IMG/VR virus record: IMGVR_UViG_3300035698_011383 | Coordinates: 1-20,099 of that record | Reading direction: 5' to 3' (one strand) | Length of the DNA stretch: 20,099 nucleotides | Source: a virus | Shown: positions 1 to 17,856 of the stretch, piece after piece | Layout: each line of letters opens with the position of its first letter | Numbering within the stretch: position 1 is the first letter of the stretch | The notes under the pieces: model-generated | The model's input: the letters and a program-made list of their open reading frames with translations, nothing else | Told to the model about the DNA's origin: nothing | The model's database searches: none | Translations under genes and position numbers: made by a program

Positions 1-2991
1 ATCTATTGCAAAAGTATTATAATCTCCCGTAAATGTTATATCCCCTCCAGAAGAAATATCAAGCCCTGCCGGGCTGTTTATCTGAATAACCCCGTCCGTC
101 CCTATTGAGAACATATCGGACCCGCTTACCTGACCCACGATCTCTGTATCATCAATTTGTATTCCATCAAGGGTCGAGTTTTTCGTTCCAGTACCTATCT
201 TGAAATATCCTCCTGAAGAAATCGCTACCGCGCGAGCAAGAACACTTCCTAAAAGCCCCTGGGCGCCTTGATCTCCTTGCGGCCCATTAGCTCCTTGGTT
301 GCCCTGGGTTCCAGTGAGTCCTTGAGCTCCGACGGCGCCAGTTGCTCCTTGGGACCCTACTGCTCCAGTAATGCCTTGAGCCCCAGTGTAGCCCTGATTT
401 CCCTGTGTCCCAGTGGATCCTTGAGATCCTGTTAATCCTTGGCTGCCAGTGACGCCAATATTGCCCTGGGCTCCGGTTGCTCCAGTATTACCCTGGGTTC
501 CCGTGAGCCCTTGGGTACCGACTGCGCCGGTGGCTCCTTGCGACCCTACTGCCCCGGTTGCCCCTTGAGCCCCATCATCTCCCTGGTTACCCTGTGTTCC
601 GGTAGACCCCTGGGCTCCTGTTAATCCTTGGCTGCCGGTGACGCCAATATTGCCCTGGGCTCCGGTTGCTCCAGTAGATCCTTGGCTTCCGGTTGCACCC
701 TGAGACCCCACTGCACCGGTGGCCCCTTGCGATCCTACTGCACCAGTTGCCCCCTGGTCGCCAGTTTCTCCCGTATCGCCTTTTGCTCCCGTCGAACCCT
801 GTGCACCTGTTGATCCCTGGCTGCCGGTTGCGCCCTGTGCGCCCTGTGCTCCCTCTTCACCGGTAGACCCTTGACTGCCTGTTGGACCTTGAGATCCTAC
901 TGCCCCGGTTGCTCCTTGTGACCCTACAACGCCTTGATGGCCCTGTGCCCCGGTGTCTCCCGTCTCTCCTTTGTCACCCTTTGCTCCCGTGGCCCCCTGA
1001 GAACCTGTGGCCCCCTGAGAACCCGTTTCCCCAGTATCACCGGTTACACCTTGACTACCTGTTGTCCCTTGTGCACCGACATCGCCAATAGACCCTTGGG
1101 ATCCCTGGGCCCCAGTTGATCCTTGGTCCCCTACCTCTCCTTGGTCCCCCTTTGCGCCAGTTGTGCCTTGTGCACCTGTTGACCCTTGGGTACCGGTTGC
1201 GCCTTGATTACCCTGAGACCCTGTCTCTCCCGTTACGCCCTGGCTGCCGGTTGGCCCCTGCGATCCCACTGCTCCCGTGGCCCCTTGCGATCCAGTAGTT
1301 CCTTGGTTTCCCTGGTCACCCTCATCTCCCTGGTTGCCCTGGGTTCCGGTTGCGCCTTGCACGCCTGTAACACCCTGGTTCCCCTGTGTGCCCGTTGCGC
1401 CTTGTGCTCCGGTGTCTCCCTGGTTTCCTTGCGCCCCGGTTGATCCAGTGGATCCTTGGGCTCCGGTTGTTCCTTGGTTTCCTTGTGTACCAGTAGTTCC
1501 CTGGGCGCCCGTAGCTCCTTGGTCTCCCTGAGTACCATCCGCGCCGACGTCCCCTGTACCGCCTGTTGACCCTTGCTGCCCTTGAAACCCCTGTGGTCCA
1601 GTGTTGCCAGTAACTCCTTGCGCCCCGGTAACACCCTGGTCACCCTGGTCACCCTTTGCACCCGTAGATCCTTGGCTACCCGTTACGCCTTGGCTACCAG
1701 TTTCGCCCTGATCCCCCTGTGGCCCCGTTGATCCAATTTCGCCTTGCGCGCCGGTAACCCCCTGGGATCCTGTCGTACCCTGGCTGCCGGTTTCCCCTTG
1801 GTCTCCCTGAGTACCCGTCGATCCTGTAACTCCTTGGAACCCCTGGTAACCTTGATTGCCCTGGGAACCCGTTACCCCTTGAGACCCTGTTTCTCCTACC
1901 TCACCTTGATTCCCCGTAGTTCCCTGGTCCCCTTGATTTCCGGTAGTGCCTTGGTAACCTTGATTGCCCTGGCTACCCGTTACGCCTTGGGATCCTGTCT
2001 CTCCTTGGGATCCTGTCTCTCCGACTACACCCTGGTATCCTTGATTTCCCTGTGCTCCTTGTGCCCCGGTTGCGCCTTGGGCTCCTTGTGTGCCCGTGGT
2101 ACCAGTAGATCCTTGATGACCTTGATATCCTTGATTTCCCTGTGCTCCTTGTGCCCCGGTTGCGCCTTGGGCTCCTTGTGTGCCCGTGGTACCAGTAGAT
2201 CCTTGATGACCTTGATAACCTTGGTTTCCCTGTGCTCCCGTGTCGCCTTGCGCACCGGTTTCTCCGACCTCCCCTTGAGTACCGTCTGAGCCCTGTACTC
2301 CTTGGCTACCGGTTACACCCTGGCTGCCGGTCGTGCCCTGACTGCCTGTTTCGCCTTGGTTCCCCTGCGATCCCGTTGATCCCGTAGACCCCTGATCTCC
2401 TTGATAACCCTGGTTGCCTTGAGATCCAGTATCCCCCTGAGATCCTGTTTCTCCGACTGACCCCTGATCCCCGGTAGTCCCCTGGTCCCCTTGGCTGCCA
2501 GTTACTCCTTGGCTACCAGTTGACCCCTGACTGCCGGTGTCCCCCTGGTCCCCTTGTGATCCAGTTGCCCCCGTAGATCCTTGGTCTCCTTGATACCCCT
2601 GCACTCCTTGTGCCCCAGTATCCCCCTGTGACCCCGTCTCCCCTACTTCCCCTTGATTGCCGGTGTTTCCCTGAAATCCTTGCGCCCCGACTACTCCTTG
2701 TGTCCCCTGGAACCCCTGGCTTCCTGTATCTCCTTGATAACCCTGGGCTCCATCCGCTCCGGTAGAACCCTGGTCGCCTTGGTATCCCTGGTTTCCTTGG
2801 GAGCCCTGATAACCCTGATAACCTCGCAGCCCTTGAAATCCTTGTGTACCGGTAACGCCCTGTGTTCCTTCTATGCCCTGGTACCCCTGGACCCCCTGGC
2901 TACCTGGAGATCCAGGGCCACCAACCGGGCCCCGAGCTCCAAACTCATACCAACCAGTGTTATTCTCATTTCTTACTTTGAGAACTGGCAT
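1..2991 (-). CDS. Giant collagen-like phage fibre protein (3' end outside window)
   Basis: At least 997 residues, open at the left edge with no stop in this frame. Residues 1-17 form a short head containing [14 protein letters not shown], the kind of strand that precedes collagen stretches in phage tail fibres. From residue 18 every third residue is glycine: reading the plus strand in 9-base steps, each step from 247 to 2940 begins with NCC, giving 300 glycines with no break. Y is mostly Gln or Thr and X is mostly Ser, Ala, Asn, Asp, Thr, Val, Tyr or Glu. Proline is rare, so stability cannot depend on hydroxyproline. The last 80 or so visible residues leave the repeat (…[19 protein letters not shown]…) and look beta-rich, perhaps the start of a trimerising or receptor-binding head. 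The ATG overlaps the stop of the glycosyltransferase-methyltransferase gene (TAATG). Function is inferred: a trimeric adhesion fibre on the virion. Confidence 0.9.
427..681 (-). repeat. Dispersed near-identical segments in the collagen array, 189 bp apart
   Basis: The segments starting at 427 and at 616 are nearly identical for about 60 bases, differing by one base near the middle (agt versus ggt). The offset of 189 bp is 21 Gly-X-Y triplets. This is an older in-register duplication than the one at 2036-2217. Confidence 0.85.
2036..2217 (-). repeat. Perfect 90-bp tandem duplication in the collagen array
   Basis: Two adjacent, apparently identical 90-bp units (2038-2127 and 2128-2217), each encoding ten Gly-X-Y triplets. 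The match extends about two bases to the left. A third, diverged copy begins at 2218. The period is an exact multiple of nine, so the collagen register is kept. Such exact identity in a region where other triplets have drifted indicates a recent duplication. Confidence 0.93.
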
Positions 2992-4262
2992 TAGATCAAT
3001 ATTTCTCCTACTGGCCGCTTAGAATACGGGCCCTTTATTGCGATTAAGTCTGCTTGAACTATCGGGATATTATTGTCTTTTTCAAAATCAGACGGGAAGT
3101 AGGTGACGATCCGACTCTTCTGAAAGCGGCCCTTGAAACTCGGGACATACTTTGAATAGAACTTGTCCGTGTAATACCAGAATGAGTTTTCGTTCCAGTA
3201 TGATATATGACTCGGATCCTGGAAGGCGCCGCGACCGTCCGTCGACGGGACATCTATAAATAACCACCCGCCAGGTGCCAGAACCCTATACGCTTCGTTC
3301 ATAGCGTGGATCGGATCCTTGAGGTGCTCGAATATATGGGATGCTCGGATTACTCCAACGCTATTTGGTGGGAATGGCCAGCTTTCATTTAGGTCTGTAA
3401 CTATGTCACAACCCAGTAAATCGACGGAAGAGTATCCTTCCCAGTGGTCGAATCGCCCTCCCAGGTCTATTAGTTCAAGATCCCCATCTACCGCCCACTT
3501 TGTTGCCATATCCCTGCTGTACTTCAAATAATTCCGTAACGTCTGCGCCTGGACGTCCTGATTATAAACCACGCAGGTGTTGTCGCCGTGTGTCCGGTAG
3601 AGATATAGGCACTTATCAATATGCTTTATCCCCTTCGCTCCGTATTTTATGTAATACCGGCAGCATAGATCGTGGTCATCTCCGGTCATTATAGTCTTGT
3701 CGTGGCCGCCGATCAGCTCGTATGAGTCTGTTCTCCACGCTCTAATATGGTTTGGGGCCCAAAAAATAAAGCGCATCATCTGAGAGGATGGTTCCCAGGC
3801 GATCATCTCGTCTAACTTGTGTCCTTTGTACTCAAAAGGTCGGTGTTTCCATCCCCAGTAGTCCGAGTAATGCTTCGCTTCCCAGGTGCCGTTCTTGAAC
3901 TCTGCGCTATTTGAATACACCATAACAACGGATGAATCCCTGAACGCCTTCTCTACTTCTTTCAAGGCGTCGGGAACCAACAGATCATCGGCGTCTAATT
4001 CTACGAGTATGTCCCCCTTTGCCTTTTCACACGCTATTTTCTTCAATCTCCCGATCCGGTTATGGCTTTCTCCATAGTCGTCATCTTTGGTAGAGAATAC
4101 CCTTACCCGCTTGCATTTCTCTACTCCCTTGGGGATCTTTCCACCGGCATTAGTCAACAGGATCCACTCCCAGTCTCTATACGACTGAGCTATTAAAGAC
4201 GCGTAAGCCTCTTCGATATAAGCGTTTGACTTCTTATAAACTGGCGTTATTATTGAGATCAT
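2991..4262 (-). CDS. Fused GT2 glycosyltransferase and SAM-dependent methyltransferase
   Basis: 423 residues in two domains. Residues 1 to about 235 are a family 2 glycosyltransferase (GT-A fold). ISIITPVYK is the first nucleotide-binding strand, ELDADD (89-93) is the DxD metal and sugar-nucleotide site, and [12 protein letters not shown] (193-204) with H225 lies where the catalytic acid and the late metal ligand are expected. Residues about 262-390 are a class I methyltransferase: IDLGGR (motif I region), EGYSSVDL, then [10 protein letters not shown] and [15 protein letters not shown] as in Methyltransf_11. No membrane segment is seen, so a cytoplasmic enzyme is expected. It has a good ribosome site (AAGGAG, 5 bases before ATG) and its stop overlaps the start of the collagen fibre gene as TAATG. 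From this position I infer that it glycosylates the fibre and that the second domain methylates the sugar. Sugar and acceptor are unknown. Lipopolysaccharide or host glycan modification is the alternative. Confidence 0.87.
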
Positions 4263-4272
4263 ACATTCTCCT

Positions 4273-4596
4273 TTACAGTTCTATCCATATCTGCCCGGAA
4301 ACCGGTGAGGTGGGGGCGGTTTCGGATATATTTGTTATTCTTAACTCTCCCGATGAGGTAACAACAGTGATTGGCAGCTCTCCAAGGGCCACTCCGTAAA
4401 ACTTCGAGTTATAGGCCACACAGGCTTTCACTCCAGAGGCAGCGGCAACTATGAAGAGGGTATCATCGTCCGGTACGTCATCCGGAACCGCCGAAACAAA
4501 CTCGGTCTTAAACGATTTAGCATATTCCAGGAAGTCTCGCAGCTTCTCGGAGTCCTCCTGGGTTGGGTTCATTAAGTCTATTTCTGGAGTTATCAT
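4273..4596 (-). CDS. Small hypothetical virion-associated protein
   Basis: 107 residues, family not recognised. The N-terminal half is acidic and probably helical (residues 10-35). The C-terminal half looks beta-rich and ends in SGQIWIEL, a Gly-Gln-Ile-Trp type ending often seen in small phage fibre or baseplate-associated proteins. The start overlaps the stop of the large neck/tail gene (ATGA), and the stop lies inside the ribosome-site region of the glycosyltransferase-methyltransferase gene, so all three are likely co-translated. The position between the neck/tail protein and the fibre suggests an adaptor or small tail component. This rests on context only. Confidence 0.75.
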   Translation of the reverse strand: MITPEIDLMNPTQEDSEKLRDFLEYAKSFKTEFVSAVPDDVPDDDTLFIVAAASGVKACVAYNSKFYGVALGELPITVVTSSGELRITNISETAPTSPVSGQIWIEL

Positions 4597-6659
4597 ATCC
4601 CTCGCCCGTGAAGGATTAGTTGTTCCATCGGCCTGTCTGGCCCGTCGATATACTCCCCATCGCTTCCCAGGTTGTGCAGCCGAACCTTGATATAGTTCCC
4701 AGTGATCTTTATATCGGTGGTACAGGTTGCTATTGCTCCAGGTGCGGCGCCGTGATCGTGTGGTCCGCCTGGATCCCAGTCCTTAATTTCTACCGGGCAG
4801 CCGGTCGAATGATTATGAGCTAGCTCTGATACCGTCATCTTGTCGGGCAGAGTGATGAGGGTATACCCGACAGTCTCTTCGACTTCACCATCGTCGTCAG
4901 CCCCCAGGGTAACCACTCCAGACGATGGCCACCCTGCTAGATCCTGGACTGTGATCTCGAGATCTCCTAGACTCGCAGAAGAATCCAAATATGTTCGGTG
5001 TGCTTCACTCGGGTTGTCATAGGTTTCTTTGAGAGAGAAGTATCCGTCGATCGGGGCCGACTGCTGGTCATCGTAGAAATCAACCATCACCTTATCTGGC
5101 CCGCGAAACGACCGGCGAAGGGTTGCCGTGAGGAACTTTATTCTCTGTGACGCTGATCCCATCCAACTAAGCTCTGCTTCCCAGGGCAACGGGCTCCCTG
5201 GAGTATCCGCGTCGATATACTTATCCCTTGATATATCCCTATCTACAACCCAGATCTGCCCATCTTCATCGGCGCTCAATAGACATGGCCTACCTGAATA
5301 TTCTGCGGGCGTCATGCTGATATACCCGTGGTCTATTGGCCACCAGGTATTATCCTTTCTTTTCCATACCAGTCCGATTGGTTCCCGGTCATTCCAGGCG
5401 GCAGATGCTTCGGTTCTGATTGAGGGCCAGGAGAAGATTACCGCATCGCGCCAGGCGTCGTATCCGGCGGAAACCATGAACCCATCATGCACATTTCTCT
5501 GCGTATAGTAGGCCCGGATCCTCTCGGCGCCCCTCTCGTCCATGCTGCGGCCAATATCGTAGACTTTCTGCCCGCTCAACATCCAGATAGTATCCCGGCC
5601 TGCCCAGACAAAGGAGTTGTCCGGAAGGCGGACAATAGATTGAAAGCTCACACAGTCGCAGGATCCATTCAGTAGCTGCGGGGACGAGAAGGGGATGATC
5701 CCCCCAGATCGTTCCATTATCCAGATACCCACATTTCCCCAGATTATTTGATACCGGCGATCCAGCGGTTGGCAGGCCACCAGGTAACTCGCGGGTCCAT
5801 CTCTAACGTCGTAATAGTCCGGCTCCCCCATTTTCCACGGGACCGCGTTCAGTGGATATTTATCAAGCATCAGGGGATTCTCTTCCGATCCGATACCCCA
5901 GAGGGACGACGCCCATTCATGCATATACCGGTATTGTCTGACCAGGTCAAGCTCTCCCGCAGGGTTAGTTAGCTTTCCATCCCAGTACCAGGCTTGATCT
6001 CTCTTGTAATTGGTCCCGACAATATACTGATTGCGTAGATACTGGGTTATATGAGTTGGATTGCGCCCATCTGCATCAAAGGTTAGGTCTGAATTGATTA
6101 GCCCGTCAAACTTTATTGCCTCAGAGTTTAGGGCGACAAGGTCATTCCATAGCACCAAGACAGGATCGCCATCGTCGAGGCTGGAAATACTATCCGGCAG
6201 AGGGTCTATAAGGTCCGTGACGTCCTCCCCGTTTCCCAGGCTGGTTATTATTTCTTGCACTGCCACTAATGCCGCGGCCGACATATCCGGGTCGACAATC
6301 GCATAGTTTAGATCTTCGGCCATTGCGGTAGATTCGGCAATAATGGTTTCCCGCTTGGTTACATTCTCTGCGTCCCCAAGCAGGAGATCGTGCCAGTTGG
6401 CCCCCTCTCGACTAAGCAAGAGATCCGGTCCCCGAAGGACATATGATGTATGTTCGTCGGGCCAAACAACCCTCTCGATGAAGGTGTTCCGTCCAACCTC
6501 CTTCGCCCAGGCAGCGCGACCGCGCCAAACAGAGAATCCTCTTGTTTCGCCGAAGATATTCTTAGCCCCCCGGAGTTCAGTCGGTAGCATCGAGGGTTCA
6601 TCGTAGTTTACCCCGGACAATACGTCGATTTGAATGGGAGTTGTATTTCTATTCGCCAT
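4593..6659 (-). CDS. Large neck/tail structural protein (P22 gp10-like position and size)
   Basis: 688 residues. It opens with a typical phage structural N-terminus (TPIQIDVLSGVNYDEP, LPTELRGAKNI). Repeated segments such as WYWDGKLTNP, VGIWIMERSGG, DNSFVWAGRDTIWML and GQIWVVDRD have the strand-rich, Trp- and Gly-containing look of beta-propeller blades. Length and gene order (after the adaptor-like gene) fit the podovirus stabilisation or tail-hub proteins typified by P22 gp10, but I cannot show homology by eye. Residues about 556-627 (LGDLEITVQDLAGWPSSGVV … LAHNHSTGCPVEI) resemble a small beta module also found as an insertion in this phage's capsid protein. The start overlaps the upstream gene by 11 bases, and the end overlaps the next gene as ATGA. 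Confidence 0.75.
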   Translation of the reverse strand: MANRNTTPIQIDVLSGVNYDEPSMLPTELRGAKNIFGETRGFSVWRGRAAWAKEVGRNTFIERVVWPDEHTSYVLRGPDLLLSREGANWHDLLLGDAENVTKRETIIAESTAMAEDLNYAIVDPDMSAAALVAVQEIITSLGNGEDVTDLIDPLPDSISSLDDGDPVLVLWNDLVALNSEAIKFDGLINSDLTFDADGRNPTHITQYLRNQYIVGTNYKRDQAWYWDGKLTNPAGELDLVRQYRYMHEWASSLWGIGSEENPLMLDKYPLNAVPWKMGEPDYYDVRDGPASYLVACQPLDRRYQIIWGNVGIWIMERSGGIIPFSSPQLLNGSCDCVSFQSIVRLPDNSFVWAGRDTIWMLSGQKVYDIGRSMDERGAERIRAYYTQRNVHDGFMVSAGYDAWRDAVIFSWPSIRTEASAAWNDREPIGLVWKRKDNTWWPIDHGYISMTPAEYSGRPCLLSADEDGQIWVVDRDISRDKYIDADTPGSPLPWEAELSWMGSASQRIKFLTATLRRSFRGPDKVMVDFYDDQQSAPIDGYFSLKETYDNPSEAHRTYLDSSASLGDLEITVQDLAGWPSSGVVTLGADDDGEVEETVGYTLITLPDKMTVSELAHNHSTGCPVEIKDWDPGGPHDHGAAPGAIATCTTDIKITGNYIKVRLHNLGSDGEYIDGPDRPMEQLILHGRGI

Positions 6660-7380
6660 AATCGCTAGCCATCCCCAGGTTAGTACGACACCTTTGTGGA
6701 TATATTGTAGAGCTTGGCTGGACCGGGATCGTGAGCTGCCTAATGAACCGATTTTTGTCCAGGAGGATGAGTCGGTCCAAGAGTCCCATATACTTCCCGT
6801 AGAATCTATCGGCCTTTACCTGGTCCCCTTGGTCAAGACACATCGCCGAGGCGGCTCCCCATTCGATTACCTTGTGGAACCTCGCGGGGAAGTCGGGGTA
6901 ACTCTCGGGCTCAACCAGGGTGGTAACTTCTTTATAAACCTCAGCGTACAGGTATGATCCGTATCTCGATATGAAGCTCGCTGATGGGGGTGGCCCGATC
7001 TGGAGCTTCGGGCGCATCGTGGTGGACTCTTGGTCAAGATACCGATGGAACCTTGGAGTACCAGGATCCTCTTCATTGATAGTATCAAACCAGTTATCAT
7101 CGGTAAGGGGATCGAGTCCTACCGGTTGTCCGTCGGAGCTTTTGTAAAACACTTTATCTACCCTGGAGAATGTAGTCGGAAGGGAATAGTCATACTGAGC
7201 TGCTACCATAGTCAGGGCCGATGACCGGATCCGGAAGAATGACCAATCCCTCTGTTCGGCCATCTCTTCGATCGTGTCATTGATAAACCCCTTTGCCTTG
7301 GTCTTGCCAGCGTTGGTTACGCTATCGCTGCGCCTGGCGACAGTCTGTGTGATGGTATCAAAGTTGCGCTGAGTGGTCAT
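6649..7380 (-). CDS. Probable head-tail adaptor (connector) protein
   Basis: 243 residues. Features shared with podovirus connector or adaptor proteins: an N-terminal helical part with FINDTIEEMAEQRDWSFFR (residues about 32-50, the recurring 'N…I…..WSF.R' helix), then TMVAAQYDYSLPTTFSRVDKV, the strand-plus-LP pattern that follows it. The C-terminal half is helical and includes HKVIEWGAASAMCLDQGD. In such phages this ring sits under the portal and joins head to tail. The gene precedes the large neck/tail gene, which starts within its last 11 bases. The start ATG at 7380 has AGGGGG upstream. Role from fold impression and order, not from a search. Confidence 0.7.
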   Translation of the reverse strand: MTTQRNFDTITQTVARRSDSVTNAGKTKAKGFINDTIEEMAEQRDWSFFRIRSSALTMVAAQYDYSLPTTFSRVDKVFYKSSDGQPVGLDPLTDDNWFDTINEEDPGTPRFHRYLDQESTTMRPKLQIGPPPSASFISRYGSYLYAEVYKEVTTLVEPESYPDFPARFHKVIEWGAASAMCLDQGDQVKADRFYGKYMGLLDRLILLDKNRFIRQLTIPVQPSSTIYPQRCRTNLGMASDYGE

Positions 7381-7401
7381 ATATGGGTCCCCCTAGTGTC
7401 C

Positions 7402-7698
7402 TTACATTGCATCTATCATTTTGCTTTTAAGAGCGATAAAGAAAGCTACAAATCCTCCTACGAGTGCCATTATAGCTACCAGCACCTTATCCACTACCGG
7501 CTTATAGTTTCTGCCTGGGCAGCTATCATGATCCAGGACTGACTTCTCAAGTTGATCGTTTAACTTCTCGAGGCTTTTCTGGATGAGGAGATTCTGTTTG
7601 CCAATCGAAATCATTGTCCTGTAATTCCATCCTCGTGCTGTGTCAGAGTCTGCCTTGATAAAGTCTGCTTCTGATATGATGTCAAGTCCATTCGGCAT
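7402..7698 (-). CDS. Small protein with coiled coil and C-terminal TM segment (holin-like candidate)
   Basis: 98 residues. Residues about 35-55 form a heptad-like amphipathic helix (IQKSLEKLNDQLEKSVLDH). Residues about 69-90 are one hydrophobic segment (VLVAIMALVGGFVAFFIAL), followed by a short Lys-containing tail. A soluble coiled coil before a single C-terminal TM is the layout of XhlA-type haemolysin/holin-associated proteins and some class III holins, so a lysis role is possible. No endolysin gene is visible beside it, so a membrane-anchored virion or exclusion protein is equally possible. Ribosome site AGGAGT, 7 bases before ATG. It follows a terminator-like hairpin and may therefore be expressed at a different level from the genes upstream. 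Confidence 0.75.
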   Translation of the reverse strand: MPNGLDIISEADFIKADSDTARGWNYRTMISIGKQNLLIQKSLEKLNDQLEKSVLDHDSCPGRNYKPVVDKVLVAIMALVGGFVAFFIALKSKMIDAM

Positions 7699-7728
7699 CG
7701 CAATTACTCCTGAGCATTAAATACAAAG

Positions 7729-7767
7729 ATCCCGAACCCCGGCAATGATTATCACCGGGGCCGGGAT
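7729..7767 (-). terminator. Strong hairpin after the secreted-protein gene
   Basis: Inverted repeat: outer arms ATCCCG (7729-7734) and CGGGAT (7762-7767), inner arms CCCCGG (7737-7742) and CCGGGG (7755-7760), with a 12-base loop. It starts 4 bases after the stop codon at 7772. On the minus strand the stem is followed by CTTTGTATTT, which is only moderately U-rich. It is therefore a plausible but possibly leaky intrinsic terminator, or a stem stabilising the 3' end. Confidence 0.65.
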
Positions 7768-7771
7768 TGCT

Positions 7772-8326
7772 TTACTTTAAGATTCCGTTTACCCTAACAA
7801 CACCATCGGATGCGGCGCCAGTAGTTAGAATTAGACTCACCCCGCCCTCGTCCTGTGAAGGAGGGTCAAAGTATTCTATCTTCTGGCCGGCTGCCCCGAG
7901 CTTAACACTATCAACGTATCTATCAGTGGGAGACTTGTCCCATTCTAATAGACCGTCTACCGCGCTTAGACTGGACCAGGATATTCCGGTAATCATCAGT
8001 CTCCTTCCAGCCGGAGTTTTCCACGGTCTAAAGGTTTCGGTATTGGTCAGTAGCTGGTTTGAAACCTGGGTAGTGTACTCATAATAAAGAACCACCGGCT
8101 GATCGGGGATCTCATAGGGAGGCACCGGCGTGTATTGTGGCGTCGGTGTTACAGTCGGCGTTGGCGTTACACTCGGCGTCGGTGTTACAGTCGGCGTTGG
8201 CGTTACACTCGGCGTCGGTGTTACAGTCGGCGTTGGCGTTACACTCGGCGAAGGAGTTGGCGTCTGGGCCATCAAAACAGTGGGCACAACCAGGAGCAAC
8301 CCCACAATCAATATAATCTTCTTCAC
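7772..8326 (-). CDS. Secreted protein with signal peptide, Thr/Pro repeat linker and C-terminal beta domain
   Basis: 184 residues. The start is GTG at 8326, with AAGGAG 8 bases upstream. Residues 1-20 are a classic signal peptide (Lys-Lys, a hydrophobic core, then VLMA before Gln21). No cysteine follows, so it is not a lipoprotein. Residues 21-70 are a Thr/Pro/Ser/Val repeat built from a 12-residue unit (PSVTPTPTVTPT) repeated three times, which gives an extended and potentially O-glycosylated linker. Residues 71-184 are a compact, strand-rich domain with no family I recognise (PAGRRLMITGISWSSLS, GGVSLILTTGAA). It lies among structural genes, between the capsid and connector genes. Exported phage proteins can act in superinfection exclusion, host-surface modification or lysis. 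None of these is shown here. Confidence 0.82.
   Translation of the reverse strand: MKKIILIVGLLLVVPTVLMAQTPTPSPSVTPTPTVTPTPSVTPTPTVTPTPSVTPTPTVTPTPQYTPVPPYEIPDQPVVLYYEYTTQVSNQLLTNTETFRPWKTPAGRRLMITGISWSSLSAVDGLLEWDKSPTDRYVDSVKLGAAGQKIEYFDPPSQDEGGVSLILTTGAASDGVVRVNGILK
8142..8249 (-). repeat. Three perfect 36-bp tandem repeats encoding the Thr/Pro linker
   Basis: Identical units at 8142-8177, 8178-8213 and 8214-8249, each encoding twelve residues of the Thr/Pro/Val/Ser linker. Diverged partial units flank them. Unit length is a multiple of three, so copy-number change would lengthen or shorten the linker without a frameshift. Confidence 0.95.
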
Positions 8327-8338
8327 GATAATCGCTCC

Positions 8339-8593
8339 TTATTTAGCCAGTGCATTCTTTACGCTCTTCGGGGTGGTCGGAGTAGCCGGTTTCGTGGCCT
8401 TCTTCTTGGCGGCCCTGGCTGCACCAGCTCTCTTGGCTACGATAGCTGCCTCTTTGGCGGCAAGAGCCCCATCGCGAGAATCAAATACCATCCTCACGCG
8501 ATCGGGAACCTCGTCGATCTCGAGCATACGGACCTTGTCCCCGCATGATTTCGCCAGCCGGGAGAAGTCTCCTCTCCGGATCTTGGTAATCAT
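8339..8593 (-). CDS. Small basic protein with Ala/Lys-rich tail
   Basis: 84 residues, family not recognised. Residues 1-42 form a short folded-looking domain (MLEIDEVPDRVRMVFDSRDG). From about residue 43 the chain becomes an Ala/Lys/Pro/Thr-rich tail (AAKEAAIVAKRAGAARAAKK, then KATKPATPTTPK) like a histone H1 tail or a highly basic nucleic-acid-binding extension. It follows the capsid gene, where phages often place head decoration or cement proteins, but the basic tail would equally suit DNA binding. No good Shine-Dalgarno precedes the ATG at 8593. An in-frame stop at 8624 excludes a much longer form. Its stop sits in the ribosome-site region of the next gene. Confidence 0.65.
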   Translation of the reverse strand: MITKIRRGDFSRLAKSCGDKVRMLEIDEVPDRVRMVFDSRDGALAAKEAAIVAKRAGAARAAKKKATKPATPTTPKSVKNALAK

Positions 8594-8623
8594 ATCATTG
8601 ACAGGAAGGAATGTAATCTTAGT

Positions 8624-8740
8624 TCATACTCTTGTGGCAGGATCCATGTCACCAGTCTTGATAATATAGTTTCCGGCCTGAATTACATCTTGCCACTGGA
8701 CATACACCCTCCGGTTATCGGTTTTGTTATGCCTAGTCAT
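8624..8740 (-). CDS. 38-residue hypothetical protein
   Basis: Short frame: ATG at 8740, TGA at 8626-8624. A ribosome site (GAGGTGA) lies about 5-7 bases before the start. The product is MTRHNKTDNRRVYVQWQDVI followed by 18 residues including GNYIIKTGDMDPATRV. It has alternating polar and hydrophobic residues but no signal peptide or recognisable motif. It fills most of the gap between the capsid gene and the basic protein gene on the same strand. Supported by the ribosome site and by position only. Confidence 0.5.
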   Translation of the reverse strand: MTRHNKTDNRRVYVQWQDVIQAGNYIIKTGDMDPATRV

Positions 8741-8778
8741 TTCTATCACCTCACTATTGATTTGTTCTATGGGGAGGA

Positions 8779-8810
8779 GGAATGGCGCCGACCCCCACCG
8801 GCGCCATTCC
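8779..8810 (-). terminator. Perfect 12-bp stem hairpin downstream of the capsid gene
   Basis: Arms GGAATGGCGCCG (8779-8790) and CGGCGCCATTCC (8799-8810) pair perfectly around an 8-base loop. It begins 20 bases past the capsid stop. Neither strand has a U-tract after the stem, so it is either a weak terminator or, more likely, a stem that protects or processes the abundant capsid mRNA. It separates capsid expression from the small genes downstream. Confidence 0.5.
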
Positions 8811-8830
8811 TATCTAACCCTCCCGGGGTT

Positions 8831-10126
8831 CTATATATTGCTGGCGTTCAAGGGGTTGGCAGAGTACACGGACATAACAGCATAATTCGGAATCTTTCCG
8901 TCCCGTCTTTTAACGGCACACTGTCCGAATATAGCCTTGAGGCCCAAACCGTGTTCAAATCCATAATCCTCGACCTCGGAAATTGCAGTAGCTCTCATCC
9001 CCCACCCTCGACAACCGATATGAGCTCCAAACCCGATCAGGTGAGAAATGTTCCGGTTGGTTATCAGAGCGCCCTCTGCGTGTGCTGCCGCGCTGGTGCT
9101 ATTTGCTCCGCGGGTGCACCCAGTATAAGCATACCCACAACCCTCGCTGTCCTCACTTACTCCTGTATATGTGATCTCTTCTGTTCCGATCAGGATACTT
9201 CCGGTAGTAGTAAAGTTCTGAAGGTAGTCTTTCTTGTCGCCGCTAACCCCGACCAGGATAGTCGTAGCTGCGTCAGTTAGATCGGTACCTGCCCCATCGG
9301 TATAGACTACCGACTCCGGACGTAACGGGGTCCCCTGGACGCAATCAGTGTGCATCGAGTAATAGGGGAACAGCGCCATCCCGCGAAGGAAGAAATTAGC
9401 TCCGGTAAACATCGGGTTAGTCTTTCCGCGTTCGGCTGCATACTTCGCAGCGTCATCAAACTGACTATCCTGCTGAAGGCGGAAGTCCGAGATCTCGTCG
9501 TAACCAATCCCGAAGATGGGAACGGACCGGCCATCAACACTTTCCATCCCGATCGGGCGAGCGCCCTTCCGGATCAAAGCTAACCGCAGGAGCTCGATCT
9601 CCGACACACCCAGCTCGTCGCCAGTATCAATAGTAGCGTCACTTACAGCGTCACCACCGTAAAGGTGATCGAGACTCGACCCAAGAGTAGCCAGGTCAAG
9701 CAGCGCGAGCATAAGGTCATCGTCAATTCGGCGGGCCATCCAGTCTGTCATCAGTTCCCTGATAGTTTCCTGGACGGAGAAGTTCGCCTCGAGTGATCCC
9801 TGGTCGTCAAACGCCATCGCGTTACGGAGCCAATCAACCGTAAGGTCAAACTGCCCGATCTGCAATTTTGTTTCTTTGGTCTTCAGGGTGGTATTTCCAG
9901 TTACTCCCCGGGAATATACGCGAGAAACGGTCTGGAAGTGAATCACATCTCCCTTTCCCTTCGCGAAATTTTCCTTCTCAATAATAGGACTAAACGATCT
10001 GGTGTGACTTGATCTCAGGTGGCTCCAGAAAGAACGCTTTACAGCGTCTATCTGAGTACCAGGCGCCCACATCTCTGGGATCGCATAGTCTAAATTGGTT
10101 TTAGTTGTGGTATTTAAGTAGGTCAT
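8831..10126 (-). CDS. Major capsid protein, N4-gp56 / DUF4043 type
   Basis: 431 residues. The diagnostic block is FAKGKGDVIHFQTVSRVYSR (residues 54-73) with GVTGNTTL, then LQIGQFDLTVDWLRNAMAFD and IRELMTDWMARRIDDDLMLALL (122-143), the layout of N4-gp56/DUF4043 coat proteins (HK97-like fold). Later family features are NPMFTGANFFLRGMALF (237-253) and EVEDYGFEHGLGLKAIFG (384-401). Between residues about 262 and 360 there is an insertion ending in GSILIGTEEITYTG … GCTRGANSTSAAAHAEGA, a small beta module of the type found in phage fibres and decoration domains. It probably projects from the capsid surface. The gene follows the scaffold gene by 17 bases, with GGGAG 9 bases before ATG. It self-assembles on the scaffold to form the head shell. 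Confidence 0.9.
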   Translation of the reverse strand: MTYLNTTTKTNLDYAIPEMWAPGTQIDAVKRSFWSHLRSSHTRSFSPIIEKENFAKGKGDVIHFQTVSRVYSRGVTGNTTLKTKETKLQIGQFDLTVDWLRNAMAFDDQGSLEANFSVQETIRELMTDWMARRIDDDLMLALLDLATLGSSLDHLYGGDAVSDATIDTGDELGVSEIELLRLALIRKGARPIGMESVDGRSVPIFGIGYDEISDFRLQQDSQFDDAAKYAAERGKTNPMFTGANFFLRGMALFPYYSMHTDCVQGTPLRPESVVYTDGAGTDLTDAATTILVGVSGDKKDYLQNFTTTGSILIGTEEITYTGVSEDSEGCGYAYTGCTRGANSTSAAAHAEGALITNRNISHLIGFGAHIGCRGWGMRATAISEVEDYGFEHGLGLKAIFGQCAVKRRDGKIPNYAVMSVYSANPLNASNI

Positions 10127-10143
10127 TGTGTGTTACTCCCGTT

Positions 10144-10953: not shown

Positions 10954-10980
10954 CTTACTGCCTCCTACGGGGATTTATAG

Positions 10981-10996
10981 CGCCCGCCGCCGGGCG
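10981..10996 (-). other. Short GC hairpin between the small post-portal gene and the scaffold gene
   Basis: CGCCCG (10981-10986) pairs with CGGGCG (10991-10996) across a 4-base loop, about 10 bases upstream of the scaffold gene's ribosome site on the minus strand. There is no U-tract, so it is unlikely to terminate. It could modulate the rate of scaffold translation or mRNA stability. Confidence 0.4.
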
Positions 10997-11002
10997 TGAG
11001 GT

Positions 11003-11353
11003 TTAGATTGGTTGATCTACTTTGTATTCCGATTCTTCTCGGTTCCTGGTCAATATGCTTTCGGCTGCGAACTGTATCGCTGTCTTGGCGTCCATAACTT
11101 CTCCGAGTCCCCATAATCTACCCTTCAGTATGTCGGGGTGCATTGCCTGGGGAGCCGGGCTGGCGAGCTGATTGAGTGTATCTCGGTACACTGAAGCAAT
11201 CAGGTGCAATATGAACTTAAACGCTGGAGTGGACTCCAGATCCCTCAGCCCTTCCGCTATCTTTAGCGTAACCAGGTCATCAGGTGCTCCGTCCCATTCT
11301 GGGATGATGTATCCCATTATCTCTTGGGGCGTCGGGGGTTCTACGTTAAACAT
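11003..11353 (-). CDS. Small conserved-looking protein between portal and scaffold
   Basis: 116 residues, family not recognised. It is mostly helical with amphipathic segments (LVTLKIAEGLRDLESTPAFK; FILHLIASVYRDTLNQL) and a C-terminal block GRLWGLGEVMDAKTAIQFAA. There is no signal peptide or TM segment. The start ATG overlaps the portal stop as TAATG, so it is translationally coupled to the portal gene. Phages often place small head-assembly or portal-associated factors here. Nothing in the sequence defines the role further. Confidence 0.75.
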   Translation of the reverse strand: MFNVEPPTPQEIMGYIIPEWDGAPDDLVTLKIAEGLRDLESTPAFKFILHLIASVYRDTLNQLASPAPQAMHPDILKGRLWGLGEVMDAKTAIQFAAESILTRNREESEYKVDQPI

Positions 11354-13509
11354 TATTGTGCACTCCTCTGCGGGGATCCTAATAGCCCCGCGTTACCGGC
11401 CTGGTCCATTAACTGCGACCGTAGTTTACTGTTCTGGACACCGTCCAGGATCTTCTTGAAGTTCTGTTTCTTCTCTTCCTCTGCGGCCATCGCGGCCATC
11501 TTCGCTTGCTCTTGATAGATCTCGTCCAGCGTTGGTAGCGGGAATTTCTCTATATTTAGTTTATCTGTCATAAATAAGACCATATCGTACATAAACTGAG
11601 GCGACTTCATAGCGGGGAAGCCCATTTGCGCCATCTTGGTGCCCAAGTAGTCTATATTCTGAAGCATTTCCTTTCTTTTGGCATCGGATTGCCTGGTCCG
11701 GATCGTCGTGGTGATCTCTCCGTCGAACGCCTGGCTCTTTAGAGTCTTGACCCGAAGCACCTCACCCATCTTCTTGTTTTGGTCGTCGAGCATAACCTTC
11801 TCTTTGCTGACGTACTTGTGGCCCTTCGCTCCTGCGTGGTGCTTATAGAGATACCGGATGTACTCCATCATCCCGTTTAGAGACCGGGCGAGAGAAGACA
11901 CCTGGCGATCAAACATCAGGGATCCGAACGCCTCATTCATCTGTAGTTCTCCGAGAGTCTTGGTCTTACTGGTCTGACTCGGTACTCCGGACAGGGTTTC
12001 GTTGGCGCCCCATAGCTGCTGAATGTATAGCGTAAACTGCTGTATCTGCTGGAATACGACGATCTGGTTCTTGTCGTGACGGAAGAGCTCCATGAACTTC
12101 GCGGAGTCTGCATACCACCTCGAACCAGGACCCCATGAGTATTTCTCCGCGTCGAGCAAGCTGCGACTCGATACGATCACCGGGGGGGAGTTGGCAATGG
12201 ACCCGGCATCCAACGCCTGGTTGGCTAGTGCGTCCATGACATCGCGGTATCCCTTGATGCTGCCCGGGACACAGTCTCCACTATACCGGCCATCCTCCGG
12301 CCTAACCTGGATTAAGAACATCGGGCGTATGTACTTGGTTTCGTTACGACAATTAAAGTTCGGGACATACTTCAGCACCTCTCCGGCGTCCTCAGAGTAC
12401 CAGGCAATGATCTCTTGCTCCCGACCCTTCTTTTTGTTGTCCTCACCGATAGTAGTAGCCCCGTAGAACTCGAAGATGTCTATCGGTTTAGTTTGTGCCT
12501 CTTCTTGGTTCTTCTCCTGGTGCGCCATAATAACTCTTTCTATCACCTCGGCGTCGAAACCATCCGGCTCTTCCCTGGATTTAATCCTTCTTCGCAGCCA
12601 CGCTTCATTGACGTGGAGCTTGAAAGACATCCACGGCAGCGCCTGGGTATCGTTTGTCCTGGCATCATTCGGATGGAATACGTCCTTTGGGTGGAAGAGA
12701 TCGAAGTCTATCCCCTCCGAGTAGGTAACCCATGTTTTGACTGCCTTCTCCCCTACGGTATAGGTAACTTCCTTCTGTTCTACTCCCTTGGTCAATGGAC
12801 CGGGCTCCAATACCCTTACCGTCCTGGCCTTGTTGTCGAACCTGTATCCGAGTGTAGCCATCACCGTTTCGGGATCGTCTAGGCCCTGGTCCCGTAACGC
12901 TATGGCGGTTTCTCTTAGTGCACCACTCTCGAGGATGATCCTATGCCAAATAAGATCGACTAAATCGGTTTCTTCGTGATACACCTCGATCGGAGCCTCG
13001 TCCGGATCGCGGAGGATTACTGTGTTCTTTCCGTTCTTATGCAGAAGATACCGGCGCTTTTCCTCGACGTATCGCTTCTTTACCTCCCAATACGGTTTGA
13101 TTACTGGATCTGCCAGCTTGTAGCTCATCGGGATCGCCTCTGACAGTATCCTGCCTAGTTCTCCCTTGGTTACTAGATGGTGCTGGTATAGGTTGTCTAT
13201 CTCCCCGGCCTCTTTGAATATCTCCCCTACCAGCCGGTAAGACTCGAACATTGGATCCAGAGTGAGTGCGGCCTCCATTTTTGGTATGAGCTGATTTATT
13301 ACGATCGCGTCCAGCCCGATCGCCACGTCGGCACATCCTGGCCACGGTCGTCTCTTTGGGTTCGTTTCGGGGTCCGGCCCCAGGGATAACCCACTAACAG
13401 ATCTCTTGGCCTCTACTCTTAGTTCCCAGTTGTCGAGCTCCTTCTCGTATGCCTTTCGTTGCCCGGAGTTTGCGGTCACAATTAAGGTACTTCTGATATG
13501 CTCCCCCAC
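11353..13509 (-). CDS. Portal protein
   Basis: About 718 residues from the GTG at 13509. Size and order (after the large terminase, before scaffold and capsid) fit the large podovirus/P22-type portal. Recognisable portal-like features are RRPWPGCADVAIGLDAIVIN near residues 53-72 (the 'PG.sn.' entry block of long portals), a central region with PVIVSSRSLLDAEKYSWGPG, QIQQFTLYIQQLWGANETLS followed by GVPSQTSKTKTLGELQMNEA (the conserved 'G..s….tAtE…' stretch), and a C-terminal charged helix EIYQEQAKMAAMAAEEEKKQ resembling the barrel/crown helix. It forms the dodecameric DNA channel at one capsid vertex and docks the terminase. The start is uncertain: GTG lacks a clear ribosome site, and the frame is open upstream to 13678 without ATG, GTG or TTG. 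Confidence 0.88.
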   Translation of the reverse strand: MGEHIRSTLIVTANSGQRKAYEKELDNWELRVEAKRSVSGLSLGPDPETNPKRRPWPGCADVAIGLDAIVINQLIPKMEAALTLDPMFESYRLVGEIFKEAGEIDNLYQHHLVTKGELGRILSEAIPMSYKLADPVIKPYWEVKKRYVEEKRRYLLHKNGKNTVILRDPDEAPIEVYHEETDLVDLIWHRIILESGALRETAIALRDQGLDDPETVMATLGYRFDNKARTVRVLEPGPLTKGVEQKEVTYTVGEKAVKTWVTYSEGIDFDLFHPKDVFHPNDARTNDTQALPWMSFKLHVNEAWLRRRIKSREEPDGFDAEVIERVIMAHQEKNQEEAQTKPIDIFEFYGATTIGEDNKKKGREQEIIAWYSEDAGEVLKYVPNFNCRNETKYIRPMFLIQVRPEDGRYSGDCVPGSIKGYRDVMDALANQALDAGSIANSPPVIVSSRSLLDAEKYSWGPGSRWYADSAKFMELFRHDKNQIVVFQQIQQFTLYIQQLWGANETLSGVPSQTSKTKTLGELQMNEAFGSLMFDRQVSSLARSLNGMMEYIRYLYKHHAGAKGHKYVSKEKVMLDDQNKKMGEVLRVKTLKSQAFDGEITTTIRTRQSDAKRKEMLQNIDYLGTKMAQMGFPAMKSPQFMYDMVLFMTDKLNIEKFPLPTLDEIYQEQAKMAAMAAEEEKKQNFKKILDGVQNSKLRSQLMDQAGNAGLLGSPQRSAQ

Positions 13510-13556
13510 CTCTATTACATCCGGTGGCGCCCCAATGTAACTCTTATTGTCTGTTA

Positions 13557-13745
13557 CTACTGTCGCTTCAGCGCCCGCAGAATTCGTTTCTTCATCTCCT
13601 TTTCTGCTCTTCTGCGCCCGGTGGCCGATCCGCCTGGTCGCAGTATTCTGTCTCTTTCGAATACTATTCCTGCCGTGCTACCTCGGCGGCGGGATATTCT
13701 CCGTACATCACTCAGCTTGGTTGTGTTTAGTATGCTAATAGCCAC
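13557..13745 (-). CDS. Small basic protein between large terminase and portal (tentative)
   Basis: A 62-residue frame starting at GTG 13745, overlapping the last bases of the large terminase gene, and ending with TAG at 13559-13557. The product is strikingly basic (VRRISRRRGSTAGIV; ATGRRRAEKEMKKRILRALK), which could suit nucleic-acid or terminase/portal contact. GGAGG precedes the GTG, but with only 2 bases of spacing. No family is recognised, and Arg-rich frames can arise by chance opposite coding constraints. The 225-base gap it fills otherwise has no gene, which is the main argument for it. Confidence 0.35.
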   Translation of the reverse strand: MAISILNTTKLSDVRRISRRRGSTAGIVFERDRILRPGGSATGRRRAEKEMKKRILRALKRQ

Positions 13746-15504
13746 TACCTCCAGCTGCGTAGTTTTGTGCTTCGGCCCGTCCCTGATCTCGATAGTCCGC
13801 AGCATCACCCTCTCGATCTGGTTGGTCCTCCCAGGGGGACGTTTCTAATAGCTGTACTCCAATCATCGCTCCAATCATCGCGTCGGAGTAATTCCCTGAT
13901 AGTGGCCTATGCTCTCCTGTTTCTGGGTCCCTCACGTAGGTCAACATCTCATCCAGGGTTACAATGTCATTTATGTGCCTGATCTCCGACCTCACGAAGT
14001 CGGCCATGTCGTTCTCCATAATAGGCAGAGTCCCGGTAGTGGTGTTCCATCCCCACCTGAGCGTCCTCTGGAAGGTCAGCTTGGTCAGTTGGTTGGTTCT
14101 GAATACATTCTCGTACGGTTCCCGGTGCTTGCGCCCGTGTCTTAACCCAGAGACAACCCCCGCCCCCATGTTATTGCACTCCGGAGCTACCAGTCCCCTG
14201 TTGTAATACGTTCCAAGCGCGAATAACACGTCCTCATATACGTCGGGGGGGTATTTGCATCGAACTGTGGCTACTTGCTCCCTTGTTCTTAGATGGAACA
14301 CGCTGGCAGTTGACCAGGCCCCGGAAGTGAGCCCGTCCCCTATGTCGGCGCCGATGACGTAGATCTCTCCTGGCACTGGGTGCCGGAAGATCTTGACGAT
14401 CCCGTATTCCTCTTTCTGGAAGAGAACCCGTCCGTGTGCCGCGACCTGGAGATGGCCACGCTGCCCGAACTCCGGATCTATCTCCTCGATCCTCTTCTCG
14501 ATGATAGGACCGCACCCTACTAGCACCATATTCCCGGAAACAACAAAAGCCTCATTGATGTTCGATGGGAAGTTTTCGAGAAATAAACCCAGGGCTACGT
14601 CCTGGTCGTCGTGAATAGCCAAGTATTCCTCGATCTTATCCCGGCGCCACTGGAGTTGTTCATTGTTAATCGGTCCCCAGGGATCGTCCTTGTACCTCTC
14701 GACGAAGTCCTCTTCCTCTCGGGTGCGCTTAAAGTCGCGCGTAACAGCGTGTTTGTACTCTTCAGTTGCAAACCAGGGTAGGAATACCAGCTGAAAGGCG
14801 CCACGCCCTGCTCTGGCAGCCTGGACCATCCGATAAAAGATCCCCCCGGCCCCCTTTGCGGTAGATTCTAGGAATGCCGTTGTCCTTCCGCCCGGGAGAT
14901 CTGGCATAGCGGGGATCAGAGCTCCCATTATCTCTTCTCCCCTGGAGAATCGAGAGATTTCCGACAGTTCGATATGCTGCCAAGTCTTGGTTATCCCTAA
15001 ACTCTTGTTCCGTGAGTTATCGACAAGCATTGACGTATCTCCCTGCTCGTCCGCCCAGGTCATCTTCTTCTTGTTGTCACTCTCTAGTGTGGGGGATATT
15101 GGCAAGCACCTATTAACATGGTCCTGGAACCGACCGGCCATCTCGAACAGGTACTCGGAGTTGGTGGCAGAGTCCGCACATATCAGGATGTTGACGTTGC
15201 GCTGAACGATCGCAATGCAATACAGGATCGCCATCGTGATAGTTGAGATGCCCTGCTGGCGAGACTTAACGATCAGTAGTCTTACATTCAGCCTCTTCTT
15301 CCACCCCTGCCGTACGATCGAGAGGAGGAAGCGCTGTACCCAGTTCGGCCTGAACACGACCAGGCCCCCGGCCTTACTACGGCACTTGAGCCAACCTCGA
15401 TCTATGACGAGAAAGGGATCCTCGGCGAACTCCTCGAGCTGCTTTGCGGTCATTATCCTCTCTTCCGCTTGTAGTACAGGACTCGTCAAAGCTCTACCCA
15501 CCAT
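13735..15504 (-). CDS. terL: Terminase large subunit (packaging ATPase and nuclease)
   Basis: 589 residues with both expected domains. ATPase: Walker A-type VKSRQQGIST (residues 79-88), Walker B with catalytic Glu in HIELSEISRF (177-186), and coupling motif ESTAKGAGG (213-221). Nuclease (RNase H-like): the acidic triad is visible as D387 in IGADIGDG, E442 in APECNNMGAG and D541 in NYSDAMIGAMIG. It translocates DNA into the procapsid through the portal and cuts the concatemer. The ATG at 15504 lies 19 bases inside the end of the small terminase gene. A second ATG (residue 18, at 15453) has a comparable ribosome site and may be the true start, since the first 17 residues lie outside the conserved domain. 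Confidence 0.95.
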   Translation of the reverse strand: MVGRALTSPVLQAEERIMTAKQLEEFAEDPFLVIDRGWLKCRSKAGGLVVFRPNWVQRFLLSIVRQGWKKRLNVRLLIVKSRQQGISTITMAILYCIAIVQRNVNILICADSATNSEYLFEMAGRFQDHVNRCLPISPTLESDNKKKMTWADEQGDTSMLVDNSRNKSLGITKTWQHIELSEISRFSRGEEIMGALIPAMPDLPGGRTTAFLESTAKGAGGIFYRMVQAARAGRGAFQLVFLPWFATEEYKHAVTRDFKRTREEEDFVERYKDDPWGPINNEQLQWRRDKIEEYLAIHDDQDVALGLFLENFPSNINEAFVVSGNMVLVGCGPIIEKRIEEIDPEFGQRGHLQVAAHGRVLFQKEEYGIVKIFRHPVPGEIYVIGADIGDGLTSGAWSTASVFHLRTREQVATVRCKYPPDVYEDVLFALGTYYNRGLVAPECNNMGAGVVSGLRHGRKHREPYENVFRTNQLTKLTFQRTLRWGWNTTTGTLPIMENDMADFVRSEIRHINDIVTLDEMLTYVRDPETGEHRPLSGNYSDAMIGAMIGVQLLETSPWEDQPDREGDAADYRDQGRAEAQNYAAGGSGY

Positions 15505-16740: not shown

Positions 16741-16764
16741 TCGCGACAAGAAGGAGAAGAGACT

Positions 16765-17818: not shown

Positions 17819-17856
17819 CCGTTCTCCCCTCTGTTAAAAAAGACAGGAACAGTCGT

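What the first reader, a model, noticed from the sequence alone, without database searches (positions are those of the whole stretch)
1..2991. Uninterrupted collagen-like fibre of about 300 Gly-X-Y triplets with Gln/Thr in Y
Every 9-base step from 247 to 2940 starts with NCC on the plus strand, so 300 glycines occur with no register slip across 2.7 kb. Prolines are rare, and Y is dominated by Gln and Thr. Known phage and bacterial collagens (for example Bacillus BclA) also use GXT/GXQ, but an unbroken array this long beside the neck/tail genes would give a very long rigid fibre (a collagen helix rises about 0.29 nm per residue, so roughly a quarter of a micrometre). Gene position suggests the virion's adhesion fibre.
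Basis: partly seen in the sequence, partly recalled or inferred. Interest (0 to 1): 0.72.

Follow-up and report, generated by a model that had tools for sequence, protein, structure and literature searches.

The report
Phage collagen fibre with sugar-transferase partner
A phage gene encodes an unbroken 300-triplet collagen-like fibre; it belongs to a mobile three-gene set (a probable docking piece, a sugar-transferase and the fibre) shared by unrelated phages, and most relatives carry two collagen arms of nearly equal length around a small sugar-binding-type domain, which hints at a folded or otherwise length-matched fibre.

Summary
Observation confirmed: the minus-strand ORF 2991→1 (997 aa, open at the contig end) has exactly 300 uninterrupted Gly-X-Y triplets (nt 2940–241), Y = Q 52%, T 34%, with 8 prolines. 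Codons have diverged while glycine is kept, so it is an old, constrained protein. Length and Q/T-rich Y are not unique: other viral contigs hold runs of 329–785.

The fibre gene overlaps a glycosyltransferase-2/methyltransferase gene (GT-MT) by one base, and that follows a small ORF I call a 'dock'. I found 18 further distinct phage contigs with this GT-MT type. All 19 have a collagen gene just downstream; 18 have the same N-terminal cap, and most have the dock upstream. Window capsid and terminase have no match in the four cassette contigs checked, so the cassette moves between phages (λ-like, Gram-positive-type and SU10-like).

In 12 of 12 complete relatives with a mid-shaft domain, collagen triplets before and after it nearly match (eight within one, three by two, one by nine). 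Two-array collagens elsewhere do not.

Best reading: a receptor-binding tail fibre, probably O-glycosylated by its neighbour; matched arms suggest it folds at mid-shaft. Glycosylation and folding are inferred.

The parts
1..2991 (-). Collagen-like fibre gene, 997 aa, 3' end missing (contig edge)
   Evidence: ORF; PF01391 E=2.3e-140; PHROG tail fiber families
2941..2991 (-). N-cap [17 protein letters not shown], conserved in the family ([18 protein letters not shown])
241..2940 (-). Uninterrupted shaft, 300 Gly-X-Y triplets, Y = Q/T
   Evidence: codon analysis
1537..1599 (-). Mid-shaft stretch [21 protein letters not shown] (triplets 149-155, counted from 0). X-residue composition changes here (best change point 155 of 298); holds the only Gly in X outside the first three triplets. 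Possible bend site (weak inference)
241..258 (-). Shaft-head joint GLLGSV (family consensus GAQGLLG[DST]xLA)
1..240 (-). Start of C-terminal head; 55% identical over 75 aa to the head of L336, 63% over 54 aa to L344
   Evidence: shorter match to L005
3005..3009 (-). AGGAG, likely ribosome-binding site of the fibre gene, 13 nt before its ATG
   Evidence: Sequence
2991..4262 (-). GT2 glycosyltransferase-methyltransferase fusion (423 aa); its TAA overlaps the fibre ATG by one base (TAATG)
   Evidence: Pfam/PHROG; family; tree; model and fold search; junction
4273..4596 (-). 'Dock' ORF (107 aa), C-terminal motif NISxTxPxxPxxxxxW; homologous domain lies just upstream of GT-MT in most relatives
   Evidence: Leave-one-out HMM E=7e-5 among 34,514 ORFs
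4593..6659 (-). Virion structural protein (688 aa; weak phrog_3287)
6649..7380 (-). SU10-type adaptor protein (neck)
   Evidence: PF24175 E=5.8e-14
8831..10126 (-). Major capsid protein
   Evidence: phrog_334 E=8e-23
11353..13509 (-). Portal / head-tail adaptor
   Evidence: phrog_332 E=1.3e-8
13735..15504 (-). Terminase large subunit
   Evidence: phrog_38407 (function unknown) E=6.5e-19 and phrog_2 (terminase) E=1.5e-14

Best explanation
The gene encodes the shaft and part of the head of a trimeric receptor-binding tail fibre of a probably short-tailed (SU10-like) phage. It is the last gene of a mobile cassette: dock, GT2-methyltransferase, collagen fibre. SHOWN here: conserved gene order, one-base overlap, shared N-cap, joint and modular heads, exchange between unrelated phages, and nearly matched collagen length on both sides of a mid-shaft CBM_5/12-like (or other) domain in 12 of 12 complete relatives that have one. 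INFERRED, likely: the short N-cap attaches the fibre to the tail through the dock domain (in L127 fused to the C-terminus of a gpJ-like tail-tip protein), and the C-terminal head, perhaps with the mid-shaft domain, binds the host. INFERRED, plausible: the enzyme made just before the fibre O-glycosylates (and its methyltransferase half may methylate the sugar of) Thr in the Gly-X-Thr triplets, before trimer folding; this would hydrate and stabilise a Pro-poor, Hyp-free triple helix, as the GT SgtA does glycosylate the neighbouring BclA3 collagen of C. difficile. INFERRED, tentative: matched arms mean the fibre can fold back at mid-shaft, bringing the head near the dock. The window's uninterrupted version has lost, or never had, the mid-shaft domain; a weak composition change near its midpoint is compatible with two arms of about 149 triplets.
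For: Fibre: PF01391 and tail-fiber PHROGs; codon divergence with glycine kept. Cassette: of 19 distinct GT-MT loci at 45% identity or more (window included), all 19 have a collagen gene (or, in the truncated L205, its start) within 1.3 kb downstream and 18 have the N-cap fibre directly downstream (17 start within -18..+29 nt of the GT-MT stop, L328 at +169); of the seven below 45% in that scan, none has an N-cap fibre. Tree of 32 GT-MTs: five collagen-adjacent ones form one 100/98 clade; label changes 2 vs shuffled mean 5.6, 2 of 500 as low. Random viral contigs: 1 of 120 with an array of 10 or more triplets, a Gly-rich one, vs 16 of 76 GT-MT loci. Dock. Mobility: window MCP matches only L003/L002 and terminase only L003, none of L126, L127, L202, L205, while GT-MT matches those four; cassette seen with SU10-type capsid/adaptor (L336), tape-measure tails (L328, L344) and gpJ-like tails (L127, L205). 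Matched arms: 110/110, 69/69, 67/67, 42/42, 63/63, 72/72, 67/68, 138/137, 58/60, 50/52, 41/43, 124/115 (L340's 138/137 by hand from the runs and joint); permuting arm 2 among the first 11 fibres: 0 of 200,000 as close; arms are not copies; 17 two-array collagens elsewhere: mean |diff|/total 0.38, 1 of 17 at or below 0.04. Precedents: SgtA-BclA3 (PMC7157674), mimivirus L230 (PMC9614988), phage EPclA collagen fibres (PMC3368898). GT domain: GT-A matches including SpsA and GalT1/CgT.
Against: No direct evidence of glycosylation. GT2 genes are only weakly, not significantly, more common in collagen-bearing contigs at large (12/50 vs 5/50), and none of 120 census loci had a GT-MT hit at E<=1e-5, so the link is specific to this lineage. 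Thr in Y is as low as 3% in L330 (35 triplets only) and 11% in L336, so Thr need not be the target. [quoted passage not shown] The fold-back rests on length matching alone; L346 deviates by 9 triplets; L338, L339 and the window lack a mid-domain, and L338 shows no mid-point change. The dock-fibre contact is inferred from gene order. Extra linkers in L127, L331 and L340 were handled by counting collagen triplets only, a choice made after seeing the data. The L202 head model failed (pLDDT 33). Relatives share ancestry and were all found through this GT-MT family.
Confidence: 0.6

Rival explanations
1. Receptor-binding fibre as above, but the GT-MT acts on something else (host surface glycan for superinfection exclusion, another virion protein, or DNA) and travels with the fibre because both concern adsorption.
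For: More distant GT-MT relatives mostly lie in contigs without collagen arrays nearby, beside unrelated genes, so the enzyme family has other contexts; phage glycosyltransferases are elsewhere proposed to protect DNA or prevent superinfection (PMC10202952).
Against: Direct adjacency in 18 of 19 members of this clade, with exchange between unrelated phages as a unit.
Confidence: 0.3
2. Matched arms do not mean a fold-back: the fibre is extended and the mid-shaft domain marks half length for another reason, such as half-staggered packing of neighbouring fibres or a folding nucleus that must sit centrally.
For: No structure available; arm sequences show no convincing antiparallel correspondence.
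Against: Triplet-exact equality in six fibres, kept while arm length ranges from 42 to 110 (up to 138 with near-equality), seems tighter than a folding nucleus would need.
Confidence: 0.35
3. The collagen protein is a head or neck decoration (like SPP1 gp12) rather than a tail fibre.
For: In the window it follows capsid and neck genes; collagen-fold capsid decoration is known (SPP1 gp12, PMC6316719).
Against: In relatives it lies next to tail-tip genes (gpJ-like in L127 and L205) or late tail genes (L202), and in L202 a lysin-like ORF follows; long variable heads are atypical of decorations.
Confidence: 0.08
4. Low-complexity expansion without function.
For: A superperiod and a near-identical 90-bp duplication (2029-2238) show growth by duplication.
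Against: Glycine is kept at 300 of 300 positions although codons have diverged; conserved cap, joint and head.
Confidence: 0.02

Closest known systems
Phage-derived collagen-like fibres of E. coli O157:H7 prophages (EPclA; PMC3368898)
   Same: Tail-fibre type phage protein with a collagen triple helix between N- and C-terminal domains
   Different: EPclA collagen is 111 residues (about 30 nm) with a PfN globular domain and a coiled coil, and rEPclA was not glycosylated; here 900 residues, a 17-residue cap, an overlapping glycosyltransferase gene and, in relatives, a mid-shaft domain with matched arms
BclA3-SgtA of Clostridioides difficile (PMC7157674)
   Same: GT-A type glycosyltransferase gene immediately upstream of a Thr-rich collagen-like surface fibre
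   Different: Spore protein, GPT repeats, SgtA has TPR repeats and no methyltransferase; here a phage protein, Q/T with little Pro, GT2-methyltransferase fusion; modification not shown here
Mimivirus collagen and L230 (PMC9614988)
   Same: Virus encodes both collagen and a bifunctional enzyme with a glycosyltransferase half
   Different: L230 is a lysyl hydroxylase-glucosyltransferase that acts on collagen; here no hydroxylase domain was found and only 5 Lys lie in Y
Bacillus BclA and streptococcal Scl collagens
   Same: Long collagen-like regions without mammalian-type hydroxyproline, with Thr common in Y
   Different: Cell or spore surface proteins; Pro in X common (review PMC8968730), here 2%

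Membership tests
Pfam Collagen (PF01391) | Tandem Gly-X-Y repeats | tested here: met
   300 triplets, E=2.3e-140
Phage collagen-like tail fibre | Virion/tail gene neighbourhood | tested here: met
   Adaptor, capsid, portal and terminase in the window; tail genes upstream in relatives
Phage collagen-like tail fibre | N-terminal virion-binding part and C-terminal receptor-binding head | tested here: inconclusive
   Conserved N-cap and variable heads; head incomplete in the window; AF2 model of the L202 head failed
Phage collagen-like tail fibre | Trimeric triple helix | not testable with these tools
   Needs CD, EM or SEC-MALLS
EPclA-type (PfN-PCoil-Col-PfC) | PfN globular domain plus coiled coil before the collagen | tested here: not met
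   Only 17 residues precede the array
SgtA/BclA-type glycosylated collagen pair | Glycosyltransferase gene next to the collagen gene | tested here: met
   One-base overlap; conserved in relatives
SgtA/BclA-type glycosylated collagen pair | O-glycosylated Thr in the collagen region | not testable with these tools
   Thr is 34% of Y; modification unknown
SgtA/BclA-type glycosylated collagen pair | GT with C-terminal TPR domain | tested here: not met
   Second domain is a methyltransferase
Mimivirus L230-type collagen modifier | Lysyl hydroxylase domain | tested here: not met
   No such Pfam match
Matched-arm architecture seen in relatives | Mid-shaft domain (usually 47-aa, CBM_5/12-like) between matched arms | tested here: not met
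   Window array is uninterrupted

The most novel reading that the evidence does not exclude
A mobile three-gene phage adhesion cassette builds a glycosylated collagen fibre whose two collagen arms are held to the same length by selection, because the fibre folds at mid-shaft into a hairpin; a dedicated GT2-methyltransferase decorates Thr of the helix and a small dock domain fixes the fibre to unrelated tail types. The window would be the longest, domain-less version.
Probability: 0.3. Interest if true: 0.8.

Novelty: new variant of a known kind. Interest (0 to 1): 0.58.

Why it matters
Phage collagens are common but their design rules are unknown. A fibre module that moves between unrelated tails with its own candidate modifying enzyme, and whose collagen arms stay matched while changing length up to threefold, offers a testable rule for how long phage fibres fold and might give a compact system for making glycosylated, hydroxyproline-free collagen in bacteria.

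Tried and rejected
(1) Extending the contig: G000 is the 20,099-base record itself; the megablast of window 2991-20099 found no named-phage match. (2) N-cap and head by tblastn in named phages: none. (3) AF2 of the L202 head: pLDDT 33, unusable. (4) General link of GT2 with phage collagens: 12/50 vs 5/50, not significant. (5) Arms as duplicated copies: rejected, similarity at shuffle level in nearly all. (6) Antiparallel correspondence of arms: only weak excess in L328 and L336, not convincing. (8) The 688-aa protein: no relative found by sequence. (9) Literature searches found no description of this cassette in the held library; absence there is not proof of novelty.

Full report
OBSERVATION. 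The minus-strand ORF 2991..1 (997 aa, open at the contig's left end) holds 300 consecutive Gly-X-Y triplets at nt 2940-241, with no slip. X is mainly S, A, D, T, N; Y is Q 52% and T 34%; only 8 prolines. The array is preceded by 17 residues ([17 protein letters not shown]) and followed by 80 residues of a head cut by the contig end. A 21-triplet superperiod is visible at protein level (24.7% triplet identity, shuffled maximum 13.7%), but half of the codons in identical triplets at that lag differ silently. The array therefore grew by old duplications and has since been held by selection on glycine. The exception is one nearly identical 90-bp duplication at 2029-2238.

IS THE LENGTH SPECIAL? 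A scan for 64 consecutive GG-N7 steps in viral contigs reached its limit at 120 loci. In that sample unbroken runs reach 785, 429 and 329 triplets, and Q or T dominates Y in many; another locus has 479. The window is at the long end, not unique. The three longest census runs are low-complexity arrays (14-15 different triplets), whereas the window has 46 different triplets.

SETTING. The window is a 20,099-base virus record. Genes on the minus strand in order of transcription: terminase, portal, capsid protein, SU10-type adaptor, a 688-aa virion protein, a 107-aa ORF, a 423-aa glycosyltransferase-2/methyltransferase fusion (GT-MT), then the fibre, with small ORFs of unknown function between. 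The GT-MT stop overlaps the fibre start as TAATG. No tape-measure gene was recognised between capsid and fibre, which with the SU10 adaptor suggests a short-tailed phage (inference).

RELATIVES. A search with GT-MT gave 76 viral loci; the closest have collagen genes beside it. A DNA pattern for the N-cap NTGWYxFG found three cap-plus-collagen contigs, L127 (= L204/L207), L202 and L205, each with GT-MT immediately upstream. A search with an alignment of the clade brought more. Altogether 19 distinct GT-MT loci at 45% identity or more (window included) have downstream sequence. All 19 have a collagen gene within 1.3 kb (in L205 only its first 30 codons are on the contig), and 18 have the N-cap fibre directly downstream; in L126 a sugar-nucleotide epimerase/dehydratase gene lies between and the cap is not recognised. 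None of the seven more distant loci in that scan has an N-cap fibre. In a tree of 32 GT-MTs the first five collagen-adjacent ones form one clade with support 100/98, and the label needs 2 changes against 5.6 in shuffles. Among 120 random viral contigs only one glycine-rich array of 10 or more triplets was seen.

A THIRD COMPONENT. The proteins ending just upstream of GT-MT in L127, L202 and L205 share a C-terminal domain with the motif [NR]ISxTEPxxPxxxxVW. An HMM of those three finds the window's 107-aa ORF as its best non-training hit among 34,514 ORFs (E = 7e-5), and the domain next to GT-MT in most new members, but not in L126, L338 or L339. In L127 the domain is the C-terminus of a gpJ-like tail-tip protein. 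I call it a dock; that it holds the fibre's N-cap is inference.

MOBILITY. The window's capsid protein matches only L003 and L002 and its terminase only L003; these gave no GT-MT hit. L126, L127, L202 and L205 have GT-MT and collagen but no match to the window's capsid or terminase (L202 and L205 are short fragments, so absence there says little). The cassette also occurs with an SU10-type capsid and adaptor (L336) whose capsid protein has no BLASTP similarity to the window's, and with tape-measure tails (L328, L344).

MATCHED ARMS. Most complete fibres have the form N-cap, collagen arm 1, a 47-aa CBM_5/12-like domain (Pfam match in four of the fibres scanned, one of them below the curated cut-off; others by sequence pattern), collagen arm 2, joint GAQGLLG[DST], head. 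Collagen triplets in arm 1 / arm 2 (joint excluded): L328 110/110, L332 42/42, L334 69/69, L336 67/67, L342 63/63, L344 72/72, L202 67/68, L127 41/43, L331 58/60, L333 50/52, L346 124/115. L340 has a different mid-domain and further inserted domains, yet 138/137 by my count (arm 2 = 34+29+69+5). Permuting arm 2 among the first 11 fibres never came as close in 200,000 trials. L202, L342 and L346 have nearly the same CBM (87-91% identical) but arms from 63 to 124, so length changes quickly while staying nearly matched. The arms are not copies of each other. Seventeen two-array collagens outside the cassette average |diff|/total 0.38, with 1 of 17 at or below 0.04. This was found after looking and deserves an independent sample. 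The window, L338 (8+278) and L339 (184) lack a mid-domain. In the window and L339 the X-residue composition changes near the midpoint (155 of 298; 91 of 184), in L338 it does not (75 of 278); the shuffles do not correct for the repeat structure, so this is weak.

MECHANISM. Best supported: a receptor-binding tail fibre with constant attachment parts (dock, cap) and variable heads (the 80 residues seen in the window resemble heads of L336 and L344). Plausible: the adjacent enzyme glycosylates Thr of the collagen. The closest tested precedent is SgtA, encoded immediately upstream of bclA3, which adds O-GlcNAc to Thr in peptides of the collagen repeats (PMC7157674); mimivirus L230 is a viral collagen glycosyltransferase (PMC9614988). 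The GT domain is a GT-A fold with matches to chondroitin polymerase, SpsA and GalT1/CgT (model pLDDT 77.7), which does not tell the substrate. Against a general rule, GT2 genes are not significantly enriched in collagen-bearing contigs at large. Tentative: matched arms imply a hairpin; half-staggered packing is a rival.

VERDICT. The new elements are the three-gene cassette and the matched-arm rule. All functional statements beyond gene content and architecture are untested.

Noticed in passing
window 7772-8326 (-), repeat 8139-8250: 184-aa ORF with a signal-peptide-like start and a 36-bp tandem repeat encoding VTPTPS/VTPTPT; Thr-Pro linker of a probable exported or virion surface protein.
   Followed up: partly
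L003 5501-8485: Portal-type ORF that appears to hold an intein-like insert (CYSPDTEALT...YVRRNGIACWCGN), in a capsid relative of the window; an HNH-like ORF lies at 12178-12936.
   Followed up: no
L127 about 10320: GT-MT reading frame is split in two overlapping ORFs (9995-10441 and 10330-11262); frameshift or sequencing error.
   Followed up: no
L114, L115, L150: Longer unbroken Gly-X-Y runs (785, 429, 479 triplets); L150 also carries a GT-MT relative 3.6 kb away, with Y = Gln/Ser.
   Followed up: partly
L126 11275-12267: NAD-dependent sugar-nucleotide epimerase/dehydratase gene between GT-MT and collagen gene; two more glycosyltransferase-like ORFs at 590-2316 (judged by eye).
   Followed up: partly
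L207: The L127 phage contig is also held in a Phenylobacterium zucineum MAG (NMUI01000069.1), a hint but no proof of host.
   Followed up: no
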